64,000 nucleotides of DNA from Dastarcus helophoroides. Lineage: Eukaryota; Arthropoda; Insecta; Coleoptera; Bothrideridae. The position numbers were made by a program, and so were the translations under genes. The notes beneath the pieces are model-generated. The model ran no database searches, had not been told where the DNA came from, and worked only from the letters and a program-made list of their open reading frames with translations. Each line of letters begins with the position of its first letter. Position 1 is the first letter of the stretch. The stretch is from contig CM053327.1 of NCBI GenBank assembly GCA_028583605.1, forward strand, positions 38,690,626 to 38,754,625, in the 5' to 3' direction. Shown piece after piece: positions 15,833 through 63,932 of this stretch.

Positions 15833-16399
15833 TCAAAAAATAGTCCCTCTGATGAGACTATATTTTGTCGTTAAACTTAGTAGGAATTAGAGAGTTTACA
15901 CCATCACCAAGGAATATTTGTATCCTCTTCCATTTGGATATTTTAAAATATCAATCAACTTTCTGTCTAGTTAAATGTTGAAATAGATGCTTCGAGTTTT
16001 GATTGAGTTAATGTCTGACCAACATCTTCCATCTTCTATTGATTCCATCTTCAACCTCATGAAGGTATTGAAACGCACTATTTTCTCTTATAGAATTTAA
16101 AGCAGATAAAGAACAAGCATTACTTTTTTGCAACAATATAATTCTCTTCATTTTGCTCAAATTTTTTAATTGTCATTTGCTATCATTTGTTGAACTGCTT
16201 TTTTACACCATTGATTTAAAATTAGAGCAACACAATGTATTCAATTAAATTTTTTATAATGTTTTAAAAGTACGTCCCTGATGAAAGCGGATAACGTCCT
16301 AATAATGGTTCTATCTGATCCACTAACCAAATTGATCCTTCTACTTTGTCTTTACATCTTTTGCAGATGATGTACTTTTCCAATTTATCGTTCTACTTT

Positions 16400-17570: not shown

Positions 17571-17720
17571 GACCCTTGCTAGTAAGACCCTTGCTAGCAA
17601 GACTCTTACTAGCAAGACACCTGCTAGCAAGACAAAAATCAACCCAGCAAGAAATTGGCAAGACAAGAAGTAAAACAACTTTTTGTCTTGCTTGGCAAGA
17701 CAAAGCGAAAAGTTAACGAG
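17565..17720. repeat. Short CTTGCTAGCAAGAC-type repeats
   Basis: Four or five ~15-bp units with the palindromic core CTTGCTAGCAAG run from 17565 to 17635, followed by AGACAAG motifs to 17720. The mirror copy is at 26570-26760. It may be the edge from which the 151-bp array expanded. Confidence 0.8.
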
Positions 17721-17929
17721 CAAAACAAGAAATCTTGCTTTGTGCATCACCAATATTAGTAAATAAGTAGGCTTCTGGACCAGAAGTTGTGCACGTATGT
17801 TTCCAAAGCGCTTACAATAGCCCTTAAAAAACATGTGGCTATCGCACTGATCACATTAAAGTACGAGAAGTGTTAAAATAGCACCAAGAGACCTTTAATT
17901 TCATGACGATTTATTGTCGTTAAAAACGG

Positions 17930-18965
17930 TTTCAGTGTTTGTCGGAGGCTTCAGAACCAGAAGTGACGTCTTATATTAGAAAAGAGGCTACAGTAGAGTC
18001 CAATTAGAAAAGAGTCTGCAGTAGAGTCCCAAGAAAGTTTTAACTATCCCTTGAGTGGTTATAGCATTAATGCAGGTAGTTGACGAAGCTTCCAAAAGGC
18101 GTTCACTTTTTATTATATTTTTAGTTAGTTAACATAGACAATATTGAGTTGTAGCAGATATATGATGGTATTTATGATTCGTAAATTGCCCAATAGAAGA
18201 ATTTACAAGACAGTAATAGAAATTTGACTACAGTGTTAGTCAGAGGCTTCAGAACCAGAAGTGACGTCCATATATTGCAAAAGAATTTAAAGCAGAGTCC
18301 AAGAGAGGTTTAGCTACTTCTTGAGTGTTTATAACATTAAAGCACGTAGTTCAAAAAACCCCCCAAAAACTTTTACTTTTCGTTTTATTTTTAGTTAGTT
18401 TTAAGTAGACATTATTAGTTTTAGCAGATATATGATGATATTTCTGGTTCGTAAATTGCATAATAGAACAATTTACAAGAAAGTAAAAGAAATGTGTGTG
18501 ACTATAGTGTTAGTCGGAGGCTTCAGAACTAGAAGTGATGTCCATTTAATGCAAAATAGTTTACAGAAGCGCCCAAGAGAGGTTTAACTACCTATTGAGG
18601 GATTATAACATTAAAGAGGGTAGTTGAAGAAGCCCCCCAAAGGCTTTCACATCTCATTTTATTTTTAGTTAGTTAAAAGTAGACAATATTTAATTATAAT
18701 AGATATATAATGATATTCCTGATTCATAAATTGCATAATCGAACAATTTACAAGAAAGTAAAAGAAATGTGACTACAATGTTAGTCAAAGGCTTCAGAAT
18801 CAGAAGTGACGTCCGTTTAATGCAAAATAGTTTACTAGGAATGCCAAGGGAGGTTTAACTACCTATTAAAATTATAACATTGAGATTATAACATTAAAGC
18901 AGGTAGTTAAAGCAGCCTCCAAAAAGCTTTTACTTTTCATTTTATTTTTAGTTAGTTAAAAAGAC
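17930..18965. repeat. ~272-bp tandem array, left arm (about 4 units)
   Basis: AGAAGTGACGTC or a variant recurs near 17959, 18257, 18531 and 18801, each with TTAACTACCTATTGAG and TTATTTTTAGTTAGTT motifs in order. The counterpart on the other strand is at 25340-26360, with an extra unit at the inner edge (24264-24445). No open coding frame. Confidence 0.9.
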
Positions 18966-25339: not shown

Positions 25340-26360
25340 GTCTTTTTAACTAACTAAAAATAAAATGAATAGTAAAAGCTTTTTGGAGGCTGCTTTAACT
25401 ACCTCCTTTAATGTTATAATCTCAATGTTATAATTTTAATAGGTAGTTAAACCTCCCTTGGCATTCCTGTAAACTATTTTGCATTAAACGGACGTCACTT
25501 CTGATTCTGAAGCCTTTGACTAACATTGTAGTCACATTTCTTTTACTTTCTTGTAAATTGTTCGATTATGCAATTTATGAATCAGAAATATCATTATATA
25601 TCTATTATAATTAAATATTGTCTATTTTTAACTAACTAAAAATAAAATGAGATATGAAAGCCTTTGGGGGGCTTCTTCAACTACCCTCTTTAATGTTATA
25701 ATCCCTCAATAGGTAGTTAAACCTCTCTTGGGCGCTTCTGCAAACTATTTTGCATTAAATGGACATCACTTCTAGTTCTGAAGCCTCCGACTAACACTAT
25801 AGTCACACACATTTCTTTTACTTTCTTGTAAATTGTTCTATTATGCAATTTACGAACCAGAAATATCATCATATATCTGCTAAAACTAATAATGTCTACT
25901 TAAAACTAACTAAAAATAAAACGAAATAGTAAAAGTTTTTGGGGGGTTTTTTGAACTACGTGCTTTAATGTTATAAACACTCAAGAGGTAGCTAAACCTC
26001 TCTTGGACTCTGCTTTAAATTCTTTTGCAATATATGGACGTCACTTCTGGTTCTGAAGCCTCTGACTAACACTGTAGTCAAATTTCTATTACTGTCTTGT
26101 AAATTCTTCTATTGGGCAATTTACGAATCATAAATACCATCACATATCTGCTACAACTCAATATTGTCTATGTTTAACTAACTAAAAATATAATGAAAAG
26201 TGAACGCCTTTTGGAAGCTTCGTCAACTACCTGCATTAATGCTATAACCACTCAAGGGATAGTTAAAACTTTCTTGGGCTCTACTGCAGACTCTTTTCTA
26301 ATTGGACTCTACTGTAGCCTCTTTTCTAATATAAGACGTCACTTCTGGTTCTGAAGCCTC
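25340..26360. repeat. ~272-bp tandem array, right arm
   Basis: Complement of the left array. GACGTCACTTCTG-type motifs recur near 25490, 26038 and 26335, with a GGACATCACTTCTAG variant near 25760. An extra unit lies at 24264-24445. Confidence 0.88.
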
Positions 26361-26569
26361 CGACAAACACTGAAACCGTTTTTAACGACAATAAATCGTC
26401 ATGAAATTAAAGGCCTCTTGGTGCTATTTTAACACCTCTCGTACTTTAATGTGATCAGTGCGATAGCCACATGTTTTTTAAGGGCTATTGTAAGCGCTTT
26501 GGAAACATACGTGCACAACTTCTGGTCCAGAAGTCTACTTATTTACTAATATTGGTGATGCACAAAGCA

Positions 26570-26760
26570 AGATTTCTTGTTTTGCTCGTTAACTTTTCGT
26601 TTTGTCTTGCTAAGCAAGACAAAAAGTTGTTTTACTTCTTGTCTTGCCAATTTCTTGCTGGGTTGATTTTTGTCTTGTTAGCAAGTGTCTTGTTAGCAAG
26701 TGTCTTGCTAGTAAGAGTCTTGCTAGCAAGGGTCTTACTACCAAGGGTCTTGCTCTCTCT
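26570..26760. repeat. Short CTTGCTAGCAAG-type repeats, right arm
   Basis: Mirror of 17565-17720, with an additional TTAGCAAGTGTCTTG unit, so the copy number changed after the arms formed. Confidence 0.8.
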
Positions 26761-27660
26761 TGTTCTTGCTGATTTGCTTGTTTTGCGCATGAGCAACAAC
26801 AAAACAGGTTCAGAATTGACTGACAATGAATTTAAAAAGTACATCACCTCTAAAAGGTGTACAGACAAAGTAGAACGATAAATTGTTACTAGCAAGGGCC
26901 TTGCTCTCTCTTGCTTTTGCTGGTTTGCTTGTTTTGCGCATAAGCAACAACAAAACAGGTTCAGAATTGACTGACAATGAATTTAAAAAGTACATCACCT
27001 CTGAAAGGTGCACAGACAAAGTAGAACGATAAATTGTTACTAGCAAGGGCCTTGCTCTCTCTTGCTTTTGCTGGTTTGCTTGTTTTGCGCACAAGCAACA
27101 ACAAAACAGGTTCAGAATTGACTGACAATGAATTTAAAAAGTACATCACCTCTAAAAGGTGTACAGACAAAGTAGAACGATAAATTGTTACTAGCAAGGG
27201 CCTTGCTCTCTCTTGCTTTTGCTGGTTTGCTTGTTTTGCGCATGAGCAACAACAAAACAGGTCCAGAATTGACTGACAATGAATTTAAAAAGTACATCAC
27301 CTCTAAAAGGTGTACAGACAAAGTAGAACGATAAATTGTTACTAGCAAGGGCCTTGCTCTCTCTTGCTTTCGCTGGTTTGCTTGTTTTGCGCATGAGAAA
27401 CAACAAAACAGGTTCGGAATTGACTGACAATGAATTTAAAAAGTACATCACCTCTAAAAGGTGCACAGACAAAGTAGAACGATAAATTGTTACTAGCAAG
27501 GCCTTGCTCTCTCTTGCTTTTGCTGGTTTGCTTGTTTTGCGCATGAGAAACAACAAAACAGGTTCAGAATTGACTGACAATGAATTTGAAAAGTACATCA
27601 CCTCTAATCTTTTAGACAAAGTAGAACGATAAATTGGAAAAGTACATCATCTGCAAAAGA
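26760..27660. repeat. 151-bp tandem array, right arm (about 6 units)
   Basis: TACATCACCTCT recurs about every 151 bp (near 26840, 26992, 27143, 27294, 27446 and 27597). Overlapping open frames on both strands are shadows of the repeat, as in the left arm. Confidence 0.95.
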
Positions 27661-33344: not shown

Positions 33345-34965
33345 TCTGACCGATTTTACACCGAAGGTGACGTCACGCTCGACTGAAATTAATTTATTGA
33401 GTTCCATAACGTTTCCACGGTAAAATCAGTTTCGTAACTTAGTTACCTTTTAAGAGGATAAGTTCCAGCTACTTGATCTCGAACAAAAAAAAGATTAGGA
33501 AAAACCAGAAACCGCGGTATGCCAAAGAAATGACGTCTGGTTCACAGACAAATAGAGCCTTGGTGTAAGAACTGGGATCTCCAGATCAAGCAATAATTAC
33601 AGAAATAGTATTCCAATGGAAGAACATGCGGCGGTCTTTATGACTGAAGTATGGGCCATTCGAGGATGAGCAAATTTCCAAATCAATATGACGCCTAGTC
33701 GCTGAATCTACATCTGCACAGTAGCCGTGCAGCGTTAAATGCCCTAGAGGAGCATACCACCAGTTTGACAGTAGTGTGGGACTGTGTGCAAACCCTTAAT
33801 ATTTCTGGGGAAACGGGCTAGTCCTTGGTTATCTTCAAGAATTAGTTTTTTTAAAGTTTAATTTACTCTCAAAGGGTAACCTCCATTATGCTTTCAAAGC
33901 ACTGTGAGTGGGATGCAAAAACAAGGATAGATGGCGATGAACCGCCTTCTTAACCAAAAATAGGTTGTAATTTTTGGGGAAAATTCCTTTCGGTAACAAG
34001 TTTCATAACTTGGAAGTTCTATAGAAAAAAAAATCTCCTTAGACAGAAGTCCTCACTGTGTCAAGCTGGACCGCACAGGGATTTGCTGTCTCCGGCTGTC
34101 TAGTACGCCCCTCAAGAATCTTGCCCTTGGGGGGATCAATCCTATTAGTTCCTGCGAGCATCTTCCGTGATAGTACTTGTAGAAAAGAGACAAGTCACCA
34201 ACCATACGCCTGTGCTCTAGTGTTTCGAGAGAATCGGTCAGACTCTCGTCATCAATTAGGCGAATCGCTCTTCTCGCCTCAAGAATCTTGCCCTTGGGGG
34301 GATCAATCCTATTAGTTTCTGCGAGCATCTTCCATGATAGTATTTCTAGAAAAGAGACAAGTCACCAACCATACGCCTGTGCTCTAGTGTTTCGAGAGAA
34401 TCGGTCGGATTCTCGTCATCAATTAGGCGAATCGCTCTTCTCGCCTCAAGAATCTTGCTATTGGGGGATCAATCCTATTAGTTCCTGTGAGCATCTTCCA
34501 TACTAGTACTTGTAAAAAAGAGACAGGTCACCAACCATACGCCTGTGCTCTAGTGTTTCGAGGAAATCGGTCAGACTCTCGTCATCAATTAGGCGAATCG
34601 CTCTTCTTTGAATTGAACACAAAAGACCTAAAGTGTGTTTTGGGGCTGACTCCAAACATGAGAACAGTATTGGCTAGTGTTGGCCTAACTTGAGTTTTGT
34701 ATAGTGTTAATAGCTGATGAGATGTGAAGTACTTTTTAGCTCTAAAAGAAAAGCCTAGCTTCTGAGAGACGGATTTGGCAGTAACGCGCACATGATCGTC
34801 CCAAGAAAAGTAAGTGCTCGCATTCACTCCTAGAATGGATAGATTAGATCCCATCGGAAGGATTTTACCGTCCTTTAGTATGTTTGTTGCATTATTTCTT
34901 GATGTTTTCTTAGGGAAAACCGCGGCCTGAGATTTTGAAGAGTTGAAGTCAACCAAATTGTTGAC
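33345..34965 (-). pseudogene. Jockey-like non-LTR retrotransposon fragment, copy B
   Basis: The minus strand encodes the region after the reverse transcriptase active site: NNLVDFNSSKSQ, ILGVNAS, FSWDDHV, QKLGF, YFTSHQLLTLYK and the C-terminal SLETLEHRRMVGDLSLFYKY, LIGLIPPRARFL. It is followed by a 3' untranslated end with CCAAGGACTAGCCCGTTTCC. Frameshifts break the frame. The 55-codon C-terminal block is tandemly repeated three times (34111-34610), in frame (165 bp). It forms a tandem pair with copy A, the join lying near 34965, where both units start with the TGACGTCACGCTC block. Confidence 0.82.
34111..34610 (-). repeat. 165-bp tandem repeat inside the retrotransposon gene
   Basis: CCTCAAGAATCTTGC recurs at about 34111, 34276 and 34444. 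The period of 165-168 bp equals 55-56 codons. Two units of the same repeat occur in copy A (about 35870-36050, with a partial unit from 35715). Confidence 0.88.
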
Positions 34966-36420
34966 CGATTCTACACCGAAAGTGACGTCACGCTCAACTG
35001 AAAATAATTTATCGACGACAAAGTACCACAACGCTTCCATGGCAAAATTAATTCAACAAATCAGTTACCTTTTAGGAGAATGAGTTGCAGCTACTTGATC
35101 CTGAACAAAAAAGATTGGGAAAAACCAGAAACTGTGGTATGCCAAAGAAATGACGTCTGGTTCACAAACAGATAGAGCCTCGGTGTAAGAACTGGGATCT
35201 CCAGACCAAGCAATAATTACAGGAAAAGTATTCCAATGGGGGCACATACGGCGGTCCTTATGGCTGCAGTATGGACCATTCCAGGATGACGAAATTTCCA
35301 ACATGACGCCTAGTCGCTACATCTGCACGGTAGCCGTGCAGCGTTAAATGCTTTAGAGGAGCATACCACCAGTTCGACCGTAGTGTGGGACTGTGTGCAA
35401 CCTCTTAATATTTCTGGGGGAACGGACTGGTCCTTGGTTATCTTCAAGAATTGATTTTTTTTAATCCACTCGCAAAGGATAATCCCAATATGCTTTCAAA
35501 GCACTGTGAGTGGGATGCGGAAACAAGGATAGATGGCGATGAACCGACTTCTCAAATAAGGATAGGTTGTAAATTTTGGGGAAAATTCCTTTCGGTAACA
35601 AGTTCCATAACTTGGAAGTTCTATAGAAAAAAGACTCTCCGTAGATAGAAGTCCTCACTGTGTCAAGCTGGACCGCACAGGAATTTGCTGCCTTTGACTG
35701 TATAGTACGCCTTAAGAAACTTGCCCTTGGGAGATCAATCCTATTAGTTCCTGCGAGCATCTTTCATACTAGTACTTGTAGAAAAGAGACAGGTCACCAA
35801 CCATACGCCTGTGCTCTAGTGTTTCGAGAGAATCGGTCAGACTCGCGTCATCAATTAGGCGAATCGCTCTTCTCGCCTCAAGAATCTTGCTCTTGAGGGG
35901 ATTAATCCTATTAGTTCCTGCGAGCATCTTCCATGATAGTATTTGTGGAAAAGAGACAAGTCACCAACCATACGCCTGTGCTCTAGTGTTTCGAGAGAAT
36001 CGGTCAGACTCTTGTCTTCAATTAGGCGAATCGCTCTTCTTTGAATTGAATTCAAGAGAGTTAAAGTGGGTTTTGGAGCCAAACGTGAAAACAGTATTTT
36101 AGTGTTGGCGTAACTTGAGCTTTGTATAGTGTTAATAGCTGATAAGATGTAAAGTACTTTTTAGCTCTAAAAAAAAGCCTAGCTTCTGAGAGGCGGATTT
36201 GGCAATAACGCGCACATGATCGTCCCAAGAAAAGTTAGTGCTCGCATTCACTCCTAGAATGGATAGATTAGATTCCATCGGAAGGATTTTACCGTCCATT
36301 AGTATGTTTGTTGAATTATCCCTTGATATTTTCTTAGAGAAAGCCGCGGCCTGAGTCTTTGAAGCATTGAAGTCGACCAAATTGTTTCTTACTTCATTCC
36401 AGAATCATCTCGAGATCTCG
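34966..36420 (-). pseudogene. Jockey-like non-LTR retrotransposon fragment, copy A
   Basis: Same content as copy B. Minus-strand reading includes LVDFNASKTQAAAFSKKI, KILPMESNLSILGVNAS, FSWDDHVRVIAKSASQKLG, the SLETLEHRRMVGDLSLFHKY block, FFYRTSKLWNLLPKGIFPKI and HRHLSLFPHPTHSALKAYWD at the C-terminus, then the 3' untranslated region (35050-35460). A short upstream reading (QLIEISR) continues to about 36440. The active-site half of the enzyme lies beyond the R1/I-like insertion, at 38290-38468 on the same strand. Confidence 0.82.
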
Positions 36421-36489
36421 ATTAATTGTCTGTATTTGCTGATGTTTCTCTTAGTCGATCTAAAGCAGCGATAGATACTAGTTTGTCAA

Positions 36490-37843
36490 AGAAAAAGGAT
36501 AACACAAGGTTACTATTTATCTGCGTAGCTGTATTTAGCGTACAAAGAATAATGGCACTAAAAGCAGGGAAAGCTTATCGAACGGTGTCAACTGAGACGG
36601 CATTGGTATTAGCAGGGCTGGTACCAATAGATATTAAATTAGAAGAAATAAGGAAGAGGAAAAGAATATTTGAATGGACAGGGGAAAAAACTTCGGGAAG
36701 AAACTGGACTGGAGATTAATGCAGAACAGATAGAGAAAAAGGCCAACGGTGTCAACTGAGGCGGCATTGGTATTAGCAGGGCTGGTACCAATAGATATTA
36801 CATTAGAAGAAATAAGGAAGAGGAAAAGAATATTTGAATGGACAGGGGAAAAAACTCGGGAAGAAACTGGACTGGAGATTAACGCAGAACAGATAGAGAA
36901 AAAGGCCAAGACGAGAATGAAAACATCCGGTAAAGAAAGTGGACCAAAAGAAGCAAGAAATGGCAACGGAATACGAAATTTATACAGACGGATCCAAACA
37001 GGACACAGGCACAGGAGCAGCTTACGTTATTTATAGGAAAGGAAAGGAAATAGGTAAGGGGCAATACAGGCTCGGGGGTAATTGCTCGGTGTTTCAGGCG
37101 GAGGTGTTAGCTATTAGGAAAGCACTAGAACGAGCTCGTACGCTGGAAAGTTGCATTATAAGGAGTGATAGTAAGGCGGCAATAGCTGCCATGCAAAATA
37201 AACCAAGCTCGGAACTTGTTAAGGAAACGCAAGATCTGCTTCAAGAACAAAATAAAACGCGATTGGAATTGGTTAAGGGACATCGGGGAGTCACTGGCAA
37301 CGAAAGAGCGGACGAGCTTGCGAAAGGCGCATGTAGTTTAGGCAATAATGGTAATAATAACATGGTGGTGGAATATGAATACGATAAGGTGCCCTTTGGG
37401 CTTATTAGGAACAGATTGTTGCATTATTCTTTTTTCAGGTGGCAACAACGATGGGATTCTGCCATAACAGGGAGACGGACTCATTGCTACCTCGGAGGGT
37501 GAAAGGCTACAGGCGTCTAAGATGAAGGCAGCTTACGCAGCAGTGCGTACAGGTGCTTACAAGCCACGGAAGGTTCCAGGAATACCTCCACAGGATGGGA
37601 AAAAGGAACTCCTCATTATGCCAATGTGGAGAGCCCGAGGATGCTGACCATGTAATGTTCGTATGCAGAAATTGGGAGGAATGGAGGAACAGAACAGAGC
37701 AACTAGCGATTAGAAAGGGAAGTTCTCTGCTAAGAAATATCGAGGAGATTGATGAAGCGGCTTGGAACCCAAATTTCTTTGAAGTTCTGAACCGAGCCGC
37801 TGGAAAGCTTAAAGAACTCAAGTCCTCATTCGAGGAACAGTAG
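36490..37843 (+). pseudogene. R1/I-like non-LTR retrotransposon, RNase H and C-terminal zinc-knuckle region
   Basis: The 3' end of an element whose polyprotein ended in RNase H. Part 1 (about 36530-36908) reads VQRIMALKAGKAYRTVSTE, the linker between RT and RNase H in R1-type elements, and is tandemly duplicated. Part 2 (36939-37502) is an RNase H domain with its whole catalytic set visible in the 187-residue frame: D17 (YTDGS), E55 (FQAEVLAI), D77 (RSDSKAA) and D125 (NERADELAKG), plus H115. Part 3 (37506-37843) has GRFQEYLHRMGKR and CQCGEPEDADHVMFVC, a CCHC-type knuckle. Frame changes between the parts and the missing RT show it is 5'-truncated and dead. It lies within the Jockey-like fragment on the other strand. 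Confidence 0.87.
36581..36907 (+). repeat. Tandem duplication of ~164 bp in the R1/I-like fragment
   Basis: AACGGTGTCAACTGAG occurs at 36581 and 36745, and both copies end in GATAGAGAAAAAGGCC. The copies differ by a few bases, including one extra T in the first, so the duplication is recent. It shifts the reading frame. Confidence 0.93.
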
Positions 37844-47576: not shown

Positions 47577-50500
47577 AAGGTGCAATAAAGTTGGACTTGA
47601 TAAACAGGGAAATGGGGAAATTACTTTAAACTTCGTCACGCCTTATATATTTAAATTTGCCCCAATTTTACGACGTCTGGGCAAAAAGGTGGTTTTAATA
47701 ACTTTAATATTTGACTGATCTCGATTCAGTTTAATAAAATACCTAAAATGAAATATTGACAATTAAAAGAAATAATATTTTAAAAAAGATATCCTTAGAA
47801 AAAATCATCTCAGAGCTATTTAAATTTCATCAACGTCCCTTTATCAAAAAAATACTGCCACTTACTTGTTAGACGTAATAAACAAAGGGACAAGAGCAGG
47901 TCATAAAGAGGAATCATCATAGTAACGAAAGGGGGGGGGGCTTCAGGACCTATTTATATTTTCCCAAACAGTATTTTAGCATAATTAAATTTGAACAGAA
48001 AATTGACGTATGTATTAAGAAAAACTCAGGTGAAAATGAAATAATAGACGCTGTAGTTTGCTACAATTCAAATTAAAAAAAAATATATAACACATCAAAT
48101 ACAACTGTTTCTGCTTTTGAAATAGCTCCAACTTATTCATATTTTCCCAAACAGTATTTTAGCATGATTGAATTTGAACAAAAAATTGACGTATATATTA
48201 GGGAAAACTCAGGTGGGAATGAAGTAATAGACGCAGTGAGCTACAATTCAGATTTAAAAAAATATATAACAGATCTAATATAACTGTTGCTGTTTTTGAG
48301 ATAGCTCAAACTTATCCATATTTTCCCAAACAGTATTTTAGCATGATTAAATTTAAACAAAAAATTGACGTATATATTAAGGAAAACTCAGGTGGGAATG
48401 AAGTAATAGACGCAGTGAGCTACAATTCAGATTAAAAAAAAATATATAACAGATGCAATATAACTGTTGCTGTTTTTGAGATAGCTCAAACTTATCCATA
48501 TTTTCCCAAACAGTATTTTAGCATGATTGAATTTAAACAAAAAATTGACATATATATTAAGGAAAACTCAGGTGGGAATGAAGTAATAGACGCAGTGAGC
48601 TACAATTCAGATTAAAAAAAATATATAACAGATTTAATATAACTGTTTCTGTTTTTGAGATAGCTCAAACTTATCCATATTTTCCCAAACAGTATTTCAG
48701 CATGATTGAATTTAAACAAAAAGTTGACGTAAGTATTAGGGAAAACTCGGGTGGGAATCAAATAATAGACGCTGTAGTGAGCTACAATTCAGATTAAAAA
48801 AAATATATAACAGATCGGACTTGATAAACAGAGAAATGGGGCAGGTGCGTTCTTTTCCTTAAAATTACTTTAAACTTCCTCACGCTTTATATATTTATAT
48901 TTGCCCCAATTTTACGACGTCTGGGCAAATACGTGGTTTTAATTAGTTCAATATTTGGCTGATCTCGATCCAATTTAATAAAATATCTAAAATGAAATTT
49001 TGATTATTAAAAAAAATAATATTTTGAAAAAGATATCTCTAGAAAAAATCATCTCAGAGCTATTCAAATTTCATCAACGTCCCTTTATCAAAAAATAGTG
49101 CCACTTACTTGTTAGACGTAATAAACAAAGGGACAATAGCAGGCCATAAAGAGGAATCATCATAGTCACGAAAGGGGGGGCCTTAAGGACCTATTTATAT
49201 TTTCCCAAACAGTATTTTAGCATAATTGAATTTAAATAAAACATTGACGTATGTATTAGGAAAAAGTCAGGTGAAGATGAAATAATAGACGCTGTAGTTA
49301 GCTACAATTCAAATTTAAAAAAATTATATAACAGATCAAATACAACTGTCTCTGCTTTTGAAATACCTCAAACTTATTCATATTTTCCCAAACAGTATTT
49401 TAGCATGATTGAATTTGAACAAAAAATTGACGTATATATTAAGGAAAACTCAGGTGAGAATGAAGTAATAGACGCAGTGAGCTACAATTCAGATTTTAAA
49501 AAATATATAACAGATCAAATACAACTGTTTCTGCTTTTGAAATAGCTCAAACTTATTCATATTTTCCCAAACAGTATTTTAGCATGATTGAATTTGAACA
49601 AAAAATTGACGTATATGTTAAGGAAAACTCAGGTGAGAATAAAGTAATAGACGCAGTGAGCTACAATTCAGATTTAAAAAAATATATAACAGATCAAATA
49701 CAACTGTTTCTGCTTTTGAAATAGCTCAAACTTATTCATATTTTCCCAAACAGTATTTTAGCATGATTGAATTTGAACAAAAAATTGACGTATATATTAA
49801 GGAAAACTCAGGTGGGAATGAAGTAATAGACGCAGTGAGCTACTATTCAGATTTAAAAAAATATATAACAGATTCAATATAACTGTTTCTGTTTTTGAGA
49901 TAGCTCAAACTTATCCATATTTTCCCAAACAGTATTTTAGCATGATTGAATTTAAACAAAAAGTTGACGTAAGTATTAGGGAAAACTCGGGTGGGAATCA
50001 AATAATAGACGCTGTAGTGAGCTGCAATTCAGATTGAAATCAGAATTCAGAATGAAGAAATATATAACAGATCGGACTTGATAAACGGAGAAATGGGGCA
50101 GGTGCGTTTTTTTCCTTAAAATTACTTTAAACTTCGTCACGCTTTATATATTTATATTTGCCCCAATTTTACGACGTCTGGGCAAAAACGTGGTTTTAAT
50201 TAGTTCAATATTTGGCTGATCTCGATCCAATTTAATAAAATATCTAAAATGAAATATTAATAATTAAAAAAAATAATATTTTGAAAAAGATATCTCTAGA
50301 AAAAATTATCTCAGAGCTATTCAAATTTCATCAACGTCCCTTTATCAAAAAATAGTGCCACTTACTTGTTAGACGTAATAAACAAAGGGACAATAGCAGG
50401 CCATAAACAGGAATCATCATAGTCACGAAACGGGACGCCTTAAGGACCTATTTATTTTTTCCCAAACAGTATCTTAGCATAATTGAATTTGAATAAAAAA

Positions 50501-51876
50501 TTGACGTATGTATTAAGGAAAAGTCAGGTGAAAATGAAATAATAGACGCTGTAGTTAGCTACAATTAAAATTTAAAAAAATTATATAACATATCAAATAC
50601 AACTGTTTCTGCTTTTGAAATAGCTCAGACTTATTCATATTTTCCCAAACAGTATTTTAGCATGATTGAATTTGAACAAAAAATTGACGTATATATTAAG
50701 GAAAACTCAGGTGGGAATGAAGTAATAGACGCAGTGAGCTACAATTCAGATTTAAAAAAATATATAACAGATGCAATATAACTGTTGCTGTTTTTGAGAT
50801 AGCTCAAACTTATCCATATTTTCCCAAACAGTATTTTAGCATGATTGAATTTAAACAAAAAATTGACGTATATATTAAGGAAAACTCAGGTGGGAATGAA
50901 GTAATAGACGCAGTGAGCTACAATTCAGATTTAAAAAAATATATAACAGATGCAATATAACTGTTTCTGTTTTTGAGATAGCTCAAACTTATCCATATTT
51001 TCCCAAACAGTATTTTAGCATGATTTAATTTAAACAAAAAATTGACGTATATATTAAGGAAAACTCAGGTGGGAATGAAGTAATAGACGCAGTGAGCTAC
51101 AATTCAGATTTAAAAAAAAATATAACAGATCCAATATAACTGTTGCTGTTTTTGAGAGAGCTCAAACTTATCCATATTTTCCCAAACAGTATTTTAGCAT
51201 GATTGAATTTAAACAAAAAATTGACTTATATATTAAGGAAAACTCAGGTGGGAATGAAGTAATAGACGCAGTGAGCTACAATTCAGATTTAAAGAAATAT
51301 ATAACAGATTCAATATAACTGTTTCTGTTTTTGAGATAGCTCAAACTTATCCATATTTTCCCAAACAGTATTTTAGCATGATTGAATTTAAACAAAAAGT
51401 TGACGTAAAACTCGGGTGGGAATCAAATAATAGACGCTTTAGTGAGCTGCAATTCAGATTGAAATCAGAATTCAGAATGAAAAAATATATAACAGATCGG
51501 ACTTGATAAACGGAGAAATGGGGCAGGTGCGCTCTTTTCCTTAAAATTACTTTAAACTTCGTCACGCTTTATATATTTATATTTGCCTCAATTTTACGAC
51601 GTCTGGGCAAAAACGTGGTTTTAATTAGTTCAATATTTGGCTGATCTCGATCCAATTTAATAAAATATCTAAAATGAAATATTGATAATTAAAAAAAATA
51701 ATATTTTGAAAAAGATATCTCTAGAAAAAATCATCTCAGAGCCATTCAAATTTCATCAACGTCCCTTTATCAAAAAATAGTACCACTTACTTGTTAGACG
51801 TAATAAACAAAGGGACAATAGCAGGCCATAAAGAGAAATCATCATAGTCACGAAAGGGGGGGCCTTAAGCGGCGAA
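47577..51876 (+). repeat. Higher-order satellite: ~385-bp spacer plus 5-6 monomers of ~180 bp
   Basis: The spacer (GGACTTGATAAACAG.. through TTTACGACGTCTGGGCAAA to AATCATCATAGTCACGAAA) starts near 47577, 48827, 50074 and 51503, at intervals of 1250, 1247 and 1429 bp. Between spacers lie 5, 5 and 6 monomers. The difference of 179-182 bp between intervals is one monomer. Monomers share TTTTCCCAAACAGTATTTTA and come in two types (CAAACTTATTCAT versus CAAACTTATCCAT). A G-run in the spacer varies in length (10 Gs near 47930, 7 near 49175). Confidence 0.95.
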
Positions 51877-57055: not shown

Positions 57056-58818
57056 GTTTCTATTTTTGAGATAGTCCAGACGTATTCATATTTTCCTAAA
57101 CACTATTTTAGCAAGATTGAATTCGAATAAAAAATTGACGTATCTATATTTTCTTTACTTAAAAGGTATAGTTAATCTACTTTTCCTTAAAATAGGTTCA
57201 CACGACATCAGAACTAAATCAACGTTAGTAATTAAATTATCAAGCAAACCTTTTTGGTGCATGTGATAAGGAGATTTTTAACTCAACCAATGAAAATAGT
57301 TTATTAAAATATTTCGCTTTGCTTAAGGGAGTGGCTTAACTCTCGTGTAAACAGAGTATAGAAAAACTTTGGTGTAAATAAAATAAGAGACGTTATAGTG
57401 AGCCTTAACTCCCATAGAAAAATAAATAATCAATATAAGAAACCAAATCTTACTGTTTCTATTTTTAAAAGTAGTTTGAGCTTATTCATATTTTCCCAAG
57501 CAGTAATTTAGCATAATTCAATTTTTTTTAAAATTGACGTATCTAGAAAAACTTCAGGTGAAAATGGAATAATAGAGGTTTTGGTGAACTGCACCTTACG
57601 TAGAAATAGGAATAATTTATAAAATACATCAAATCTTACGGTTTCTGTTTTTGAGATAGTTCAGACCTATTCATATTTTCCCAAACAGCATTTTAGCTAA
57701 ATTGAATTTGAACAAAAAATTGACTTATGTATTAAAGAAAACTCAAGTGGCAATAAAATAATGGACGCTATAGTGAGCTACAATTCAGATTAATAAAATT
57801 TATATACCAGATCAAATATAAATGTTTCCACTTTTGAGATAGCTCAGACTTATTCGTATTTTCCCAAACAGTATTTTCGCTTAATTGAATTTGAACAAAA
57901 AATTGACTTATGTATTAAAGAAAACTCAAGTGGCAATAAAATAATGGACGCTGTAGTGAGCTACAATTCAGATTAATAAAATTTATATACCAGATCAAAT
58001 ATAAATGTTTCCACTTTTGAGATAGCTCAGACTTATTCGTATTTTCCCAAACAGTATTTTCGCTTAATTGAATTTGATCAAAAAATTGACCTATGTATTA
58101 AAGAAAACTCAAGTGGCAATAAAATAATGGACGCTGTAGTGAGCTACAATTCAGATTAATAAAATTTATATACCAGATCAAATATAAATGTTTCCACTTT
58201 TGAGATAGCTCAGACTTATTCATATTTTCCCAAACAGTATTTTCGCTTAATTGAATTTGAACAAAAAATTGACTTATGTATTAAAGAAAACTCAAGTGGC
58301 AATGAAATAATGGATGCTGTAGTGAGCCACAATTCAGATTTAAAAAATTTCTATACCAGATCAAAGATAAATGTTTCCACTTTTGAGATAGCTCAGACTT
58401 ATTCGTATTTTCCCAAACAGTATTTTCGCTTAATTGAATTTGAACAAAAAATTGACGTATGTACCAAGGAAAACTCAGCTGGGATGAAAAAATAGACGCT
58501 ATAGTAAGCTACAATTCAGATTGAAAAAAATTATATAACAGATCGAATATAACTGTTTTCACTTTTGAGATAGCTCAAACTTATTCATATTTTCAGTATT
58601 TAAGCATGATGAATTTGAACAAAAAATTGACTTATTTATTAAGAAAATCCCAGGTGGGAATGAAATAATAGACGCTGTAGTGAGCTACAGTTCAGATTGA
58701 AGAAAATTATATAACGGATCAAATATGAATGTTTCCACTTTTGAGATAGCTCAGACTTATTCATATTTTTTCAAACAGTATTTTAGCATCATCGAATTTG
58801 AACAACAAATTGGCGTAT
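57056..58818 (+). repeat. Second block of the ~180-bp satellite, here mostly 183-bp units
   Basis: AGCTCAGAC recurs near 57841, 58024, 58207 and 58390, exactly 183 bp apart; more diverged units lie at 57056-57660 and 58500-58818. Compared with the 180-bp monomers at 48-51 kb these units have one extra codon (GTAGTGAGC versus GTGAGC). One unit is fully open from 58310 to 58495 (61 codons, containing FEIAQTYSYFPKQYF). The block is cut by the P-like element at 58819-58826. Confidence 0.93.
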
Positions 58819-59062
58819 GTACTAAGCACGATATAATATAAGACTGGTAATTTAACCCGCTATATCTCACTGTTGCGATAAGTGGCACTAAAACCGGAGA
58901 CGACTGAAAAGAGAACACGATATGAAGGATAAACAATAAAGGGCTGCCTTGAGTAGATTAAGCAATGCTTTCATATGCAAATATTGATACTTAATGCAAT
59001 TGTTTCGCAATTGTTCGGTTTTATATTTATTTTTCAATTACAAATTGGGCAAGACTTGCGTT

Positions 59063-59260: not shown

Positions 59261-60060
59261 CGTTTTTTTTCTAAAAAACTTAATCAGTTTCTATTAGATG
59301 AATATCTTATGCCCAAAGTAATTTAAACATAAACTTGTTTTTGTATATATATTTAATAAAGAGAAATGATATTAATAGACATATGAGCCGTTGGTTTATC
59401 AGAGTCCGGTGTATGTATAAAACATTAGCTATAACTTTTTTTAAACTGTTTATAGAAAAAATGTGTCAGATAAACTTTTTTGGTTAATTAAATGTCACTT
59501 TCCAGTGACTTTGATGTTGTTTTTTTAGCTTTTATTTTGTTGCTTTGGTAACTAATTTTTGAGTTTTCAAATGACACCTGAATTTTTATTTGCTCTTTTG
59601 AAAAAAATCTTAACTTTCTGCATTCGGTAACATCAAATTTGTAGGGGTTAGATTCGAAGAATTTCGAGAAATTATAATTTTACTGATTTTTGTCATTTAT
59701 TTTTTAATATTATATTTAAAGAACTCCAAGTACTAAAATGAAATCGTTACCAAAAACGAACATAGATATACTATAGAATCCTTGTCTTCTGGGAACTCTC
59801 CTAGAGAGCAACCGCTTCGCTAGGTGGCAGTGTTTCAACTGTTGGTAGTTCAGCTACCTATGATTCACTATACACGCCGCCTGGAGGGCTGCATGAATTT
59901 GTAGTCTAGGTTGCATTCTTCTTGCATACGACATTGTTGGCGATGGTCATAGTTTCTCTATGGACCAATAGGTGGTAGTACTAAAGAGTCACTCGCTTGA
60001 CGCCTGTGAATGTTTTAGTACTTACTTGTCAAAGCATTTATTAGCATTCGAGTTGAATAT

Positions 60061-60103
60061 ACCAAACTGACGAGATCTAACAAGATCGAAACCGGTATTT
60101 AGT
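60061..60103 (+). ncRNA. Type I hammerhead ribozyme, copy 1
   Basis: Stem I strand ACCAAA (60061-60066), core CTGACGA (60067-60073), stem II GATC-TAACAA-GATC (60074-60087, perfect), GAA (60088-60090), minimal stem III ACCGGT (60091-60096), cleavage base A (60097), then TTTAGT, which pairs with ACCAAA except for one mismatch. All invariant hammerhead positions I can check are kept, and the cleavage triplet is GUA. The self-complementary ACCGGU stem III is the short form that usually works best as a dimer. Confidence 0.88.
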
Positions 60104-60437
60104 TTCCAAACTTCGAATCTAATAAATGTTCAAACCTATTGGTCTGTGCATTAAAGAATCCTTGTCTTCTGGGAACTCTCCTAAAGAGCAACCGCTTCGC
60201 TAGGTGGCAGTGTTTCAACTGTTGGTAGTTCAGCTACCTATGATTCACTATACACGCCTGGAGGGCTGCATGAATTTGTAGTCTAGGTTGCATTCTTCTT
60301 GCATACGACATTGTTGGCGATGGTCATAGTTTCTCTATGGACCAATAGGTGATAGCACTAAAGAGTCACTCGCTTGACGTCTGTGAATGTTTTAGTACTT
60401 ACTTGTCGAAGCATTTATTAGCATTTGAGTTGAATAT

Positions 60438-60480
60438 ACCAAACTGACGAGATGTAACAAGATCGAAACCGGTATTTGGT
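60438..60480 (+). ncRNA. Type I hammerhead ribozyme, copy 2
   Basis: Same order as copy 1: ACCAAA, CTGACGA, GATG-TAACAA-GATC (one stem II mismatch), GAA, ACCGGT, A (60474), TTTGGT. Here stem I is perfect over 6 bp. The two copies have lost different base pairs, so their common ancestor had perfect stems I and II. Confidence 0.88.
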
Positions 60481-61007
60481 TTCCAAACTTCGAATCTAAT
60501 AAATGTTCAAACCTATTGGTATGTGCATTATAGAATAGAGATATACTGGCAAAAATTTTATTTTAATTAGAATCAGTAAAATTATGAAATTTTTATATTC
60601 TCTCAAACTTTTTCACTTCTAAACCTTGGAAGATTTGAGGTCTTCAAATGCAGAAAGATATGCAAATTCTAAAAAAAGCAAACAACGGATGTCATTTGAA
60701 ATTTCAAACTTCGTTACCGTAGCAATGAAACAAAATCAGGGAAAAAGAAATTAAGGTCACCAAAATGTGGCAGATAATTAACCAAAAAAGGTTTATCTGA
60801 AATATTTTGTTGTAAAATTATTTTTAAAAGAGTTACAGCCAATATTCCAGACATACGTCGAACGGTGCCGTATACTTTGCATAGAGTTATGCCAGTTCTT
60901 AAACATCTTATTGTCGATCTCTCTCTCTAAGCCACCAGTCTCCCGATTACGTGCCACATTTTGCCTCGCGCCGGATTACCTTACTTATACATTATCATGG
61001 TACTAAG

Positions 61008-61618
61008 GAAAACTTAGGTGAAAATGACATAACAGACGCTGTAGTGAGCTACAATTCAGATTGAAACAAATTATATACCAGATCAAAAATAAATGTTTCC
61101 ACCTTTGAGATAGCTCAGACTTATTCATATTTTCCCAATCAGTATTTTAGCATGATTGAATTTGAACAAAAAATCGACGAATGTACTAAGAAAAACTCAG
61201 ATGGGAATAAAAAAATAGACGCTGTAGTGACCTACAATTTAGATTACAAAAAAATTATATAACAGATCAAATACAACTGTTTCCAGTTTTGAGATAGCTC
61301 AAACTTGTTCATATTTTCCCAAACAGTATTTTAGCATGATTGAATTTGAACAAAAAATTAACATATGTATTGGGGAAAACTCAGGTGGGAATGAAATAAT
61401 AGACGCTGAAGTGAACTACAATTCAGATTTTAAAAATATATAACAGATCAAATATAACTGTCTTTGCTTTTGAGATAGATCAAACTTAATCATATTTTTC
61501 CAAACAGTATATTAGCATGATTGAATTTAAACAAAAGAGTGACGTATGTATAAAGGAAAACTCAGGTGGAAATAAAATAACAGACGTTGTAATGAGCTAC
61601 AATTCAAATTAAAAAAAA
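61008..61618 (+). repeat. Third block of the ~180-bp satellite
   Basis: It continues the block cut at 58818: about 3.4 diverged monomers with CAAACAGTATTTTAGCATGA and GTAGTGA..CTACAATT motifs. It ends in an A-run and TA where the pogo-like element begins. Confidence 0.92.
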
Positions 61619-61824: not shown

Positions 61825-62107
61825 GTAAGTAATAAATGAGTATTACCAGTTATTAGGTATGTATACATAAGTGTTATACTATTTAGTATATCGATATTAT
61901 GTTTATTTCAACATTTTGTGATCTTCAGTAATTAAAATATTGTGACTTGAAAAAATATTTAGACGAGTTTGAACTAGTATAAAAATCCAAATATGGACAG
62001 TCGTCGGTGTCTAATTATGGAATATTCCATAATTAGGTCTTTATATTTCACATGATAGGTACTTGCTACTATTTCTTTAAAAAATTATATGTTATGTTTG
62101 TTTTTAG
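61825..62107 (+). other. Predicted 5'-UTR intron of the transposase gene
   Basis: AAAG|GTAAGT at 61821-61830 is a strong donor, and TTTGTTTTTAG ending at 62107 is a strong acceptor directly before the ATG at 62109. Splicing would remove 283 bp and place the start codon at the beginning of exon 2. Without splicing an upstream in-frame ATG at 62052 would add 19 hydrophobic, unlikely residues. Confidence 0.65.
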
Positions 62108-62108
62108 A

Positions 62109-63932
62109 ATGTGGGCTTCACAATCAACCAAGAAACGAAAAATCTGGGATGAAGAAAAAATGGCAGAAGCTATAAAATTCATCCGGGGAAAGAAAATGGG
62201 ATATTTGAAAGCGGCACAGCATTTTCAAGTGTCTAGGACAACTTTATTTCGTTTATGCCAACAAGATGAACAGTCTCCAGAAGTGGCAGCAGCTACTACA
62301 TTAGGACGAAAAACTATATTGGGCTCCGAACTTGAACGTCAGTTAGTAGAATACATATTAATGATGAAGAGCAAGTTTCACGGTTTAACAAGAACTGATC
62401 TTCGCCGTATGGCGTATATGCTAGCAAAGCGAAACAACTTGCAGAATCCCTTCGGTAAATCAGGTATGGCTGGAAAAAAGTGGTTAAAGTTATTTTTAAA
62501 TCGTCATAAAGATAAACTTGCGATAAGAAGACCAACTGGTACATCTTTTGCCAGAGCATTTGAATTTGATAAAGAAAAAGTGGATGCTTTTTTCAACCTC
62601 CTTGAAGAGCTTTACACTAAAAATAATTATCTACCAAATCGAATTTACAACGTGGATGAATCAGGCCTCACAATAGTACAAAGTAAGATACCACAAATCA
62701 TCGGTCACAAAGGTAAACGCCAGATAGCTGCACTGACATCAGCAGAAAGAGGATCTCTTATGACAATAGTTGTTTGCATGAATGCTACTGGTCATTTTGT
62801 GCCACCGTTCATTATTTTTCCCAGAAAAAATATGAGTGCCCAGCTAATAAGAGGCTGTCCTCCAGGATCAGTCGGAGTTGCACATCCATCAGGGTGGATT
62901 CAAATGAACATCTTTACAGACTGGTTCAGGCACTTTATTGAACACACCAACCCGACTCCTGAATCAAGGGTTTTACTGATACTAGATGGACACTATAGTC
63001 ATACTCACAATATCGATATAATAGATATTGCTAGGGAAAATAACGTGGACATAGTTTCGTTACCTTCACATACGACTCACAAATTGCAGCCGTTAGACAA
63101 GACTTTCTTGGGGCCATTAAAAACATACTACAGTGAGGAAACACGCATGTGGATTAGAAGCAACAACAGACCTCTAAGTCCATATGATATTGTGGAGCTG
63201 TTTGGCAAATCCTATTTGAAAGTACAAACAGGTGAAATTGCAGCCAACGGGTTCAAAGTCTCTGGATTATGGTCTTTAAATAAAAATGTGTTCAGTGATG
63301 TGGACTTTATTGCTGCGCAACAAAATGCTGTAAGAGACGGTTGTACAACCAATATCACTCCAGTGGAATCAAGATCTGAAACTGATCAAGTTCTGATAGA
63401 AATACCTGTACCAGAAACAACTGCTAATGTACAACCTGAACCTGCACCCTCGACTTCCGGGCTTAATCGCAGCAGTTTGAGTCTGGTGTCTCCGCATGCC
63501 ATAAGTCCAGCACCAGAGAAACGAAGAAAAGTATCTGCTGTAGCAGCAGTCATAACATCTTTACCCTACAAAAATGATTTAGTAAATAAAAATATGAAGA
63601 GACAAGAAAAAGAAAGTAAATTAGTCAAGACAAAAAATAAGAAGAAAACTGCGAAGAGAAAGAAACAAACGAAGAAAAATAAGGATGATTGGGAAGAAGA
63701 AGACTCTGAGGAACAGGACGATATCCAGTTTGATGAAGGCAGTGAACATAATGAGTTGATGGACCAAGTATCTCCTGACTCTGCTGATGCAGAATGTATG
63801 TTCTGTTCAAGACTTTTTTCCATGGATAAAAGTGGAGAAAGCTGGATTAAATGCTTAATGTGTGGGCTCTGGGCACATTATGATTGTGCTGGTCCAGAGT
63901 TTGATACTTGGATCTGTGACTTTTGCAAGTGA
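62109..63932 (+). CDS. Pogo/Tigger-like DDE transposase with C-terminal PHD finger
   Basis: 607 residues, uninterrupted. It would cut and paste the surrounding transposon in the nucleus. Residues ~15-50 are a Psq-type helix-turn-helix (AAQHFQVSRTTLFRLC), and ~75-145 a CENP-B-like second DNA-binding region. The DDE_1 catalytic domain spans ~170-400, with D183 (YNVDESGL), D293 (LILDGHYSH) and D330 (LQPLDKTF), all present. Residues ~520-550 form a lysine-rich stretch (likely nuclear signal), followed by an acidic stretch. Residues 563-606 form a C4HC3 PHD-type finger: C563, C566, C582, C585, H590, C593, C603, C606. I chose the ATG at 62109 over that at 62052 because a splice acceptor ends at 62107. 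It could be an active element or a domesticated gene; an intact frame in a repeat-rich setting favours a young transposon. Confidence 0.93.
   Translation: MWASQSTKKRKIWDEEKMAEAIKFIRGKKMGYLKAAQHFQVSRTTLFRLCQQDEQSPEVAAATTLGRKTILGSELERQLVEYILMMKSKFHGLTRTDLRRMAYMLAKRNNLQNPFGKSGMAGKKWLKLFLNRHKDKLAIRRPTGTSFARAFEFDKEKVDAFFNLLEELYTKNNYLPNRIYNVDESGLTIVQSKIPQIIGHKGKRQIAALTSAERGSLMTIVVCMNATGHFVPPFIIFPRKNMSAQLIRGCPPGSVGVAHPSGWIQMNIFTDWFRHFIEHTNPTPESRVLLILDGHYSHTHNIDIIDIARENNVDIVSLPSHTTHKLQPLDKTFLGPLKTYYSEETRMWIRSNNRPLSPYDIVELFGKSYLKVQTGEIAANGFKVSGLWSLNKNVFSDVDFIAAQQNAVRDGCTTNITPVESRSETDQVLIEIPVPETTANVQPEPAPSTSGLNRSSLSLVSPHAISPAPEKRRKVSAVAAVITSLPYKNDLVNKNMKRQEKESKLVKTKNKKKTAKRKKQTKKNKDDWEEEDSEEQDDIQFDEGSEHNELMDQVSPDSADAECMFCSRLFSMDKSGESWIKCLMCGLWAHYDCAGPEFDTWICDFCK

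What the first reader, a model, noticed from the sequence alone, without database searches (positions are those of the whole stretch)
59773..60538. Retrozyme-like dimer with two near-intact type I hammerhead ribozymes
The sequence shows a tandem dimer (unit 377 nt between predicted cleavage sites after 60097 and 60474), each copy with CTGACGA, stem II, GAA, ACCGGT, A and a closing stem I. Each copy has lost a different single base pair (stem I in copy 1, stem II in copy 2), so the ancestor was perfect. Tandem ~150-400-nt units with type I hammerheads are known as metazoan retrozymes, which make circular RNAs. If real, this locus could produce a self-cleaved 377-nt circular RNA.
Basis: partly seen in the sequence, partly recalled or inferred. 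Interest (0 to 1): 0.92.

Follow-up and report, generated by a model that had tools for sequence, protein, structure and literature searches.

The report
Hammerhead retrozyme with two-ended insertion footprint
This is one worn copy of a tiny jumping element that carries a self-cutting RNA motif and is present in many copies in this genome; the way its copies are inserted points to the kind of enzyme that copies and pastes it.

Summary
59773-60538 is a tandem dimer (377-nt spacing, 96-97% identical) with a type I hammerhead motif in each copy. It is a real insertion: a 9-bp duplication (AGATATACT) flanks it, and 4 of 4 fetched copies of the host repeat are uninterrupted there. The genome holds 7127 such cores (3 mismatches or fewer; reversed control 0) and 2018 perfect 43-nt hammerheads. 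The window copy has lost base pairs that nearly all sampled copies keep, so it is a decayed member of a large metazoan-type retrozyme family.

What is new lies outside the window. Of 82 sampled insertion blocks, 53 are head-to-head inverted pairs. In 45 of those 53, one arm starts at unit position ~62 and the other at ~208. In the predicted circular RNA these sites are the 3' ends of the two strands of one helix. This fits two-ended, target-primed copying of a circular (or multimeric) RNA from two internal start sites, the behaviour shown in vitro for a Penelope-like element (PMC11167929). Penelope-like copies in this genome also end at just two sites (19 of 19 examined). Enzyme and circularity are inferred, not shown.

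The parts
59773..60538 (+). whole retrozyme insertion: single-arm copy, two turns plus ~8 nt of the 377-nt unit (unit positions ~55 to ~62)
59764..59772 (.). left copy of the 9-bp target-site duplication AGATATACT
   Evidence: present once at the empty sites L102, L104, L105 (L103 with one difference)
60539..60547 (.). right copy of the 9-bp target-site duplication
59773..60152 (+). copy 1
60153..60538 (+). copy 2 with the short overlap into a third turn
60061..60103 (+). type I hammerhead 1; predicted cut after 60097; one stem I pair lost
60438..60480 (+). type I hammerhead 2; predicted cut after 60474; one stem II pair lost
60098..60474 (+). unit between the two predicted cuts (u1-u377); predicted 377-nt RNA
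60145..60159 (+). strand ending at cDNA start site A (u48-u62); the next occurrence ends at 60536, the 3' end of this insertion
60292..60305 (+). strand ending at cDNA start site B (u195-u208), predicted to pair with u48-u62
59411..59688 (+). left arm of the older dispersed inverted-repeat element into which the retrozyme inserted
60593..60856 (-). right arm of the same host element (about 70% complementary)

Best explanation
The locus is a decayed copy of an abundant non-autonomous retrozyme. Proposed cycle: (1) genomic copies are transcribed; (2) type I hammerheads cut the transcript into ~377-nt units, probably acting in pairs because helix III is only ACCGGT, one A-U pair closed by a palindromic CCGG when alone and 6 bp when two copies pair; (3) the unit folds into a branched rod with its ends held together by a long stem I, and a host ligase closes it; (4) a Penelope-type reverse transcriptase-endonuclease, probably a dimer, binds the helix u48-62:u195-208, cuts AT-rich DNA with ~12-nt 3' overhangs and uses both overhangs as primers, one starting at u62 and the other at u208; (5) each cDNA runs round the template, often for more than one turn, and the two cDNAs are joined head to head; when only one primer works, a single-arm tandem like the one in the window results. 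Shown by sequence here: motif, copy number, duplications, empty site, two fixed start sites, head-to-head polarity, arms longer than a turn. Predicted: RNA fold. Inferred: cleavage, circularity, ligase, overhangs, dimer, identity of the enzyme.
For: Hammerhead; 2018 perfect 43-nt copies, control 0. Insertion: duplication and 4 of 4 fetched empty sites. Two-ended pattern (82 blocks): 53 head-to-head, no tail-to-tail in the sample; 45 pair start site A (u50-72) with B (u198-220), 3 AA, 0 BB, 5 with an end elsewhere; binomial P 1.3e-10 for 45 of 48. 123 of 135 outer ends fall at A or B (54 of 65 in loci picked only by the hammerhead core). Duplications of 8 bp or more in 49 of 82 against 1.1% in mismatched flank pairs, and in 41 of the 45 AB blocks; 27 of the 49 are 12-13 bp. 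Arms over 377 nt: 74 of 145 in all, 19 of 73 in pattern-picked loci. One helix joins the sites: MFE pairs u62-u195 and u48-u208; 27 of 39 natural units, the window's included, show a helix with both 3' ends within 2 nt of A and B. Structure z -8.0, -9.1, -9.6 in three of these units. Penelope link: a purified Penelope-like protein cuts and extends both target strands from two internal RNA sites and prefers AT-rich DNA (PMC11167929, parts 1-2 of 4 read); inverted repeats of Penelope elements are said to be most often head-to-head, with 8-10 bp duplications in examples (PMC3846280, passages). This genome has GIY-YIG and reverse transcriptase elements; 19 of 19 examined 3' ends lie at one of two sites, and L082 and L084 are head-to-head with one end at each site.
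Against: No expression, cleavage or circularity data were available. Multi-turn arms could also be copied from uncut multimeric transcripts; the in vitro Penelope work found hammerhead cutting unnecessary. 22 of 82 blocks show no duplication of 5 bp or more. No sequence similarity between the retrozyme unit and seven Penelope-like loci was found by blastn at E 1; start-site resemblance is weak (best ranks among 377 positions: A 2nd and B 12th in L009, A 10th and B 8th in the window unit). In the Penelope-like copies the two end sites were not the two ends of one predicted helix in the three folds tried, and their duplications were not measured. 12 of 39 units lack the A/B helix by the criterion used, in 6 of these because the motif text search failed. 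41 of 82 blocks were picked for similarity to the window unit; the other 41 come from one stretch of contig C1. The minus strand of the units is structured too (z -5.3 to -5.9).
Confidence: 0.75

Rival explanations
1. The retrozyme is moved by a LINE-type enzyme by ordinary twin priming, as in inverted L1 copies, not by a Penelope-type enzyme.
For: Head-to-head inverted insertions with duplications also arise in LINE twin priming (recalled); the window holds an RNase H frame, which I read as LINE-like.
Against: In LINE twin priming the second start is not at a fixed RNA site (recalled); here both are fixed (123 of 135 ends). I saw no A-rich or microsatellite tail at the ends listed. Two internal start sites are reported as special to Penelope-like elements (PMC11167929).
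Confidence: 0.12
2. The template is an uncut multimeric linear transcript, and the hammerhead and circle play no part in insertion.
For: Tandem loci can give multimeric transcripts; hammerhead mutants still served as template in vitro (PMC11167929). In pattern-picked loci only 1 of 57 inner ends lies at the predicted cut.
Against: Core and stems are kept: in similarity-picked loci 92 of 96 core-intact hammerheads have stems I and II fully paired. In the same loci 9 of 66 inner ends fall at u375-u1, the predicted cut, which is weak because of the picking. 124 of 145 sampled arms are no longer than two units, so few loci could supply a long multimer.
Confidence: 0.25
3. Inverted copies arise by self-priming or fold-back of one cDNA, as proposed for Penelope elements of Adineta (PMC3846280).
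For: Head-to-head polarity; 32 of 48 arm junctions overlap or miss by 3 nt or less.
Against: A fold-back copy would end where the first cDNA began (AA or BB); 45 AB against 3 AA and 0 BB.
Confidence: 0.03
4. An ordinary satellite or DNA-level tandem duplication that carries a hammerhead-like motif by descent, with no retrotransposition.
For: Tandem arrays of other sequences are common in the window.
Against: Target-site duplications, empty sites and many dispersed copies with two fixed ends.
Confidence: 0.02

Closest known systems
Metazoan non-LTR retrozymes with type I hammerheads (Cervera and de la Pena 2020, PMC7229834)
   Same: Type I hammerhead, tandem units of a few hundred bp, GC below 50%, no ORF found, duplications longer than 4 bp, self-paired unit, co-occurrence with Penelope-like elements.
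   Different: 53 of 82 sampled blocks here are head-to-head with two fixed start sites, which I did not find described. Helix III is the short palindromic kind that the paper reports for amphibians, whereas it says that most invertebrate retrozyme hammerheads cut well.
Newt, salamander and axolotl hammerhead repeats (described in PMC7229834)
   Same: 330-350-nt units; weak helix III with a single pair and a palindromic tetraloop, acting better as dimers.
   Different: Unit sequences were not compared; the present genome is probably an arthropod's (weak evidence).
Poseidon/Penelope-like elements (PMC11167929, PMC3846280)
   Same: Two internal cDNA start sites, both target strands extended, AT-rich target, head-to-head copies, short duplications.
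   Different: Those elements code for RT-GIY-YIG; no frame of 85 aa was found in the retrozyme. Duplications here are most often 12-13 bp against 8-10 bp in the Adineta examples seen.
Dolichopoda pDo500 satellite hammerheads (PMC2837043, passages)
   Same: Hammerhead in repeated DNA of an insect; single and double forms considered.
   Different: Described there as satellite DNA; dispersed insertions with duplications here. Sequences were not compared.

Membership tests
type I hammerhead ribozyme | catalytic core CUGANGA ... GAA ... UH at the cut, with open-ended stem I | tested here: met
   Rfam clan CL00010 model HH9 at E 2.2e-4 and 1.4e-3
type I hammerhead ribozyme | Rfam gathering score of a hammerhead family | tested here: not met
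   0 gathering hits in the window; HH9 24.6-35.6 bits against 52
type I hammerhead ribozyme | helix III able to form | tested here: inconclusive
   ACCGGT: one pair plus CCGG alone; self-complementary between two copies (duplex -8.3 kcal/mol)
type I hammerhead ribozyme | self-cleavage and loop-loop contacts | not testable with these tools
   needs bench work
metazoan non-LTR retrozyme | tandem units of about 150-450 bp bearing type I hammerheads | tested here: met
   377-nt spacing; arms from under one to more than two units elsewhere
metazoan non-LTR retrozyme | GC below 50% and no coding sequence | tested here: met
   GC 0.406; no open frame of 85 aa or more inside the element
metazoan non-LTR retrozyme | target-site duplication longer than 4 bp | tested here: met
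   9 bp here, 4 of 4 fetched empty sites; 49 of 82 blocks with 8 bp or more
metazoan non-LTR retrozyme | many dispersed copies in the genome | tested here: met
metazoan non-LTR retrozyme | stable, highly self-paired unit RNA | tested here: met
   window unit z -3.0 (as a linear strand -107.1, and about 3 of 51 sampled stretches of the window are at least as low); three less worn units z -8.0 to -9.6
metazoan non-LTR retrozyme | expression as linear and circular RNA | not testable with these tools
   no RNA data at hand
metazoan non-LTR retrozyme | absence of LTRs, PBS and polypurine tract | not tested
   not searched for
insertion by a Penelope-like enzyme | cDNA starts at two fixed internal RNA sites | tested here: met
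   123 of 135 outer ends at A or B
insertion by a Penelope-like enzyme | both target strands primed | tested here: met
   53 of 82 blocks head-to-head, 45 of these AB
insertion by a Penelope-like enzyme | AT-rich target | tested here: inconclusive
   76% AT in flanks and duplications of 49 sites; no matched genomic background was run; the window averages about 65% AT
insertion by a Penelope-like enzyme | RT-GIY-YIG element present in the same genome | tested here: met
   91 GIY-YIG matches with 150 of 1070 candidates scored; RT fragment in L087, 28.2 bits, just under the Pfam cut-off of 29.6
insertion by a Penelope-like enzyme | biochemical use of the retrozyme RNA | not testable with these tools
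   needs purified enzyme

The most novel reading that the evidence does not exclude
A retrozyme that parasitises a Penelope-type dimer by offering it one RNA helix with two usable 3' strand ends: the enzyme holds the helix across a ~12-nt staggered cut and each DNA overhang starts on one strand, so a circular RNA is copied in two directions at once and lands as a head-to-head, multi-turn insert. The same geometry might explain the long-puzzling optional 'tail' of Penelope elements.
Probability: 0.45. Interest if true: 0.85.

Novelty: new variant of a known kind. Interest (0 to 1): 0.68.

Why it matters
It was open which enzyme moves metazoan retrozymes and how a circle is copied into DNA; PMC7229834 names LINEs or Penelope-like elements as candidates. 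A family with thousands of hammerhead motifs, two fixed start sites and clean insertion footprints gives direct genomic evidence and exact RNA positions to test. It also links the two-site initiation seen in one purified Penelope-like enzyme to a natural, very short RNA template.

Tried and rejected
Rejected: chance motif; single-copy sequence; local DNA duplication (empty sites); fold-back self-priming (AB pairing).

Led nowhere or stayed weak: plasmid collection search with the unit, no match; viral contig pattern scan, 0; tRNA scan, 0; sequence mimicry of Penelope start sites, suggestive only; blastn of the unit against seven Penelope-like loci, nothing at E 1; tblastn of Penelope-like RT and EN fragments against the window, best E 0.10; pile-up of inner ends at the cut site, 9 of 66 in similarity-picked but 1 of 57 in pattern-picked loci; stronger conservation of the hammerhead stretch, rank 15 of 377 windows in similarity-picked and 55 of 377 in pattern-picked arms, modest, and the latter were picked by an exact core. 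The host was not identified: the pogo-like frame's best named relatives are insect proteins, but a transposon is weak evidence; the RNase H frame gave one unnamed hit. Picking and dropping: similarity-picked loci come from the 40 scored of 2883 candidates; pattern-picked loci all lie on contig C1 between 0.46 and 8.44 Mb and have an exact core. Before the count of 82 (from 71 of the 80 loci), blocks within 60 nt of a locus end, blocks with N in the flanks and repeats of the same flank were dropped; some loci give more than one block, so a few blocks may be pieces of one insertion. The 19 Penelope-like ends are 6 loci already at hand and 13 of the longest profile matches, out of 91; L083, less similar, was left out.

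Mended on checking: the units without the A/B helix for lack of a motif match are 6, not 5; 7 of 12 helix pairs, not most, exceed 0.9; the stem counts were redone without the biased loci.

Literature: searches listed no paper that, by title, start of abstract or the parts opened, describes inverted or twin-primed retrozyme insertions; the library lacks most subscription papers, and no supplements were read. Seen: PMC7229834 parts 1-4 of 6; PMC11167929 parts 1-2 of 4; PMC7761336, PMC3846280, PMC2837043 and PMC11722881 passages only; the rest search listings.

Full report
What is there. The finding's coordinates hold a two-unit element, 59773-60538, flanked by AGATATACT at 59764-59772 and 60539-60547. 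The two copies align with 9 substitutions in 375 columns and one 3-nt indel. Both carry a type I hammerhead motif, the only two in the 64-kb window by a stem-aware descriptor, which hit once in 150 shuffled windows. Rfam reports none at gathering threshold but matches both sites to Hammerhead_HH9 with E 2.2e-4 and 1.4e-3 when the 901-base stretch is searched alone. In four other loci the model scores 32.6-35.6 bits, still under its cut-off of 52.

It is an insertion. The element lies between the arms of an older inverted-repeat element (59411-59688 and 60593-60856, about 70% complementary). The left arm was found in full or nearly so at 40 places at 91-100% identity, the window's own included (40 of 477 candidates scored, so a lower bound). 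Four other copies that I fetched, L102-L105, are uninterrupted at the insertion point and hold the 9-bp target once, three of them letter for letter. So 766 bp came in with a 9-bp duplication.

It is a large family. The 31-nt core occurs 7127 times in the 539-Mb assembly with up to 3 mismatches, against 0 for the reversed control; the full 43-nt hammerhead with all stems occurs 2018 times exactly, control 0. The two base pairs that the window copies have lost are kept in nearly all others: 121 of 123 and 106 of 110 positions in similarity-picked arms without the window locus, where also 92 of 96 core-intact hammerheads have stems I and II fully paired; in pattern-picked arms it is 34 of 41. 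The window unit folds at -102 kcal/mol as a circle (z -3.0); its linear energy of -107.1 is not unusual for this window, where about 3 of 51 sampled 377-base stretches are at least as low. Three less worn units fold at -131 to -140 (z -8.0, -9.1, -9.6; their minus strands z -5.3 to -5.9), and 38 other natural units range from -108.6 to -139.5. The window locus is therefore a decayed member.

How copies are built. I mapped 82 insertion blocks from 71 of 80 fetched loci: 41 in loci picked by similarity to the unit, 41 in loci picked by an exact core on contig C1. Numbering the unit from the predicted cut (u1 = 60098), 123 of 135 outer ends fall at site A (u50-72, mostly u59-62) or site B (u198-220, mostly u207-208); in core-picked loci 54 of 65. 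53 of 82 blocks are inverted pairs, each of them head-to-head. In 45 of the 53 one arm starts at A and the other at B; 3 are AA, none BB, and 5 have an end elsewhere (P 1.3e-10 for 45 of 48). Duplications of 8 bp or more occur in 49 of 82 against 1.1% for mismatched flanks, in 41 of the 45 AB blocks, and 27 of the 49 are 12-13 bp; 22 of 82 show none of 5 bp or more. 74 of 145 arms exceed one unit and 21 exceed two; in core-picked loci 19 and 2 of 73. 32 of 48 simple arm junctions overlap or miss by 3 nt or less. The window copy is a single-arm case: from A, twice round, ending near A.

Why two sites. In the circular minimum-energy fold of the window unit, u48-53 pairs with u203-208 and u57-62 with u195-200; 7 of these 12 pairs have probability above 0.9 and all are above 0.6. 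Sites A and B are thus the 3' ends of the two strands of one helix, one of 15 in the fold. Of 39 natural cut-to-cut units from 29 loci, the window's included, 27 show a helix with both 3' ends within 2 nt of A and B; in 6 of the 12 others the A or B motif was not found by the text search.

Which enzyme. PMC11167929 (parts 1-2 of 4 read) reports that a purified Penelope-like protein cuts and extends both target strands, prefers AT-rich DNA, starts cDNA at two internal sites in its RNA that explain the genomic 'tail', and is predicted to be a dimer. PMC3846280 (passages) calls head-to-head the most frequent inverted arrangement of Penelope copies and gives example duplications of 8-10 bp, with some copies lacking one. 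This genome has many GIY-YIG matches (91 with 150 of 1070 candidates scored), and L087 has a Penelope-type RT fragment upstream of its match (28.2 bits, Pfam cut-off 29.6). In 19 examined copies the 3' end lies at one of two sites about 37 nt apart: 14 at the outer, 5 at the inner, L085 being the reference and L097 assigned by eye. L082 and L084 are head-to-head with one end of each kind. This is the same logic as in the retrozyme, so a Penelope-type enzyme is the best candidate. Against it: no detectable sequence homology between the unit and seven Penelope-like loci, only weak resemblance of start sites, and no single helix joining the two Penelope ends in three folds. Target flanks of 49 sites are 76% AT with a mild symmetric preference next to the duplication; no matched background was run.

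The ribozyme. Helix III is ACCGGT. Alone it gives one pair closed by a palindromic CCGG; between two copies it gives 6 bp (-8.3 kcal/mol). PMC7229834 describes such a weak form for amphibian retrozymes, which cut better as dimers. In that cross-paired mode stem I forms between copies. For the window, core 1 with the 3' side of copy 2 is then fully paired (cut at 60474), while core 2 with the 3' side of copy 1 collects both lesions (cut at 60097). This predicts unequal cutting. Evidence that cutting happens in vivo is thin: 9 of 66 inner ends in similarity-picked loci lie at u375-u1, but only 1 of 57 in core-picked loci.

Limits. Circularity is not proven: multi-turn arms could come from multimeric transcripts. 

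Verdict. Known kind (metazoan non-LTR retrozyme), a family that I could not match to a described one, with an insertion pattern that I did not find described in the searches listed. It makes the question of who copies retrozymes, and from which RNA positions, directly testable.

Noticed in passing
59411-60856: The retrozyme sits in the loop region of a dispersed inverted-repeat element (left arm at 40 places at 91-100%, the window's own included), a ready source of empty sites.
   Followed up: yes
62037-63932: Long open frame of 631 aa of pogo/Tigger type: DDE_1, HTH_psq and Tc5 HTH domains and a PHD-like C-terminal match under the Pfam cut-off; possibly a recent copy.
   Followed up: partly
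47956-51407, 57649-58825, 61000-61617: Arrays of what looks like one 179-184-bp satellite at several places in the right half of the window.
   Followed up: no
16381-18961 and 25441-27636: Paired 151-bp and 274/275-bp tandem arrays in mirror order, suggesting a large inverted duplication centred near 22 kb.
   Followed up: no
34110-37502: 167-bp and 164-bp tandem repeats next to an RNase H open frame, 36921-37502, perhaps of a LINE.
   Followed up: no
L082, L084-L101: The Penelope-like copies examined in this genome end at one of two 3' sites about 37 nt apart (19 of 19), like the 'tail' reported for other species.
   Followed up: partly
L009 2152-2263, L030 2051-2128: Centres of head-to-head inserts give miRNA-precursor matches well under gathering score, as expected of long palindromes; transcripts would form long double-stranded RNA, a possible small-RNA source.
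   Followed up: no
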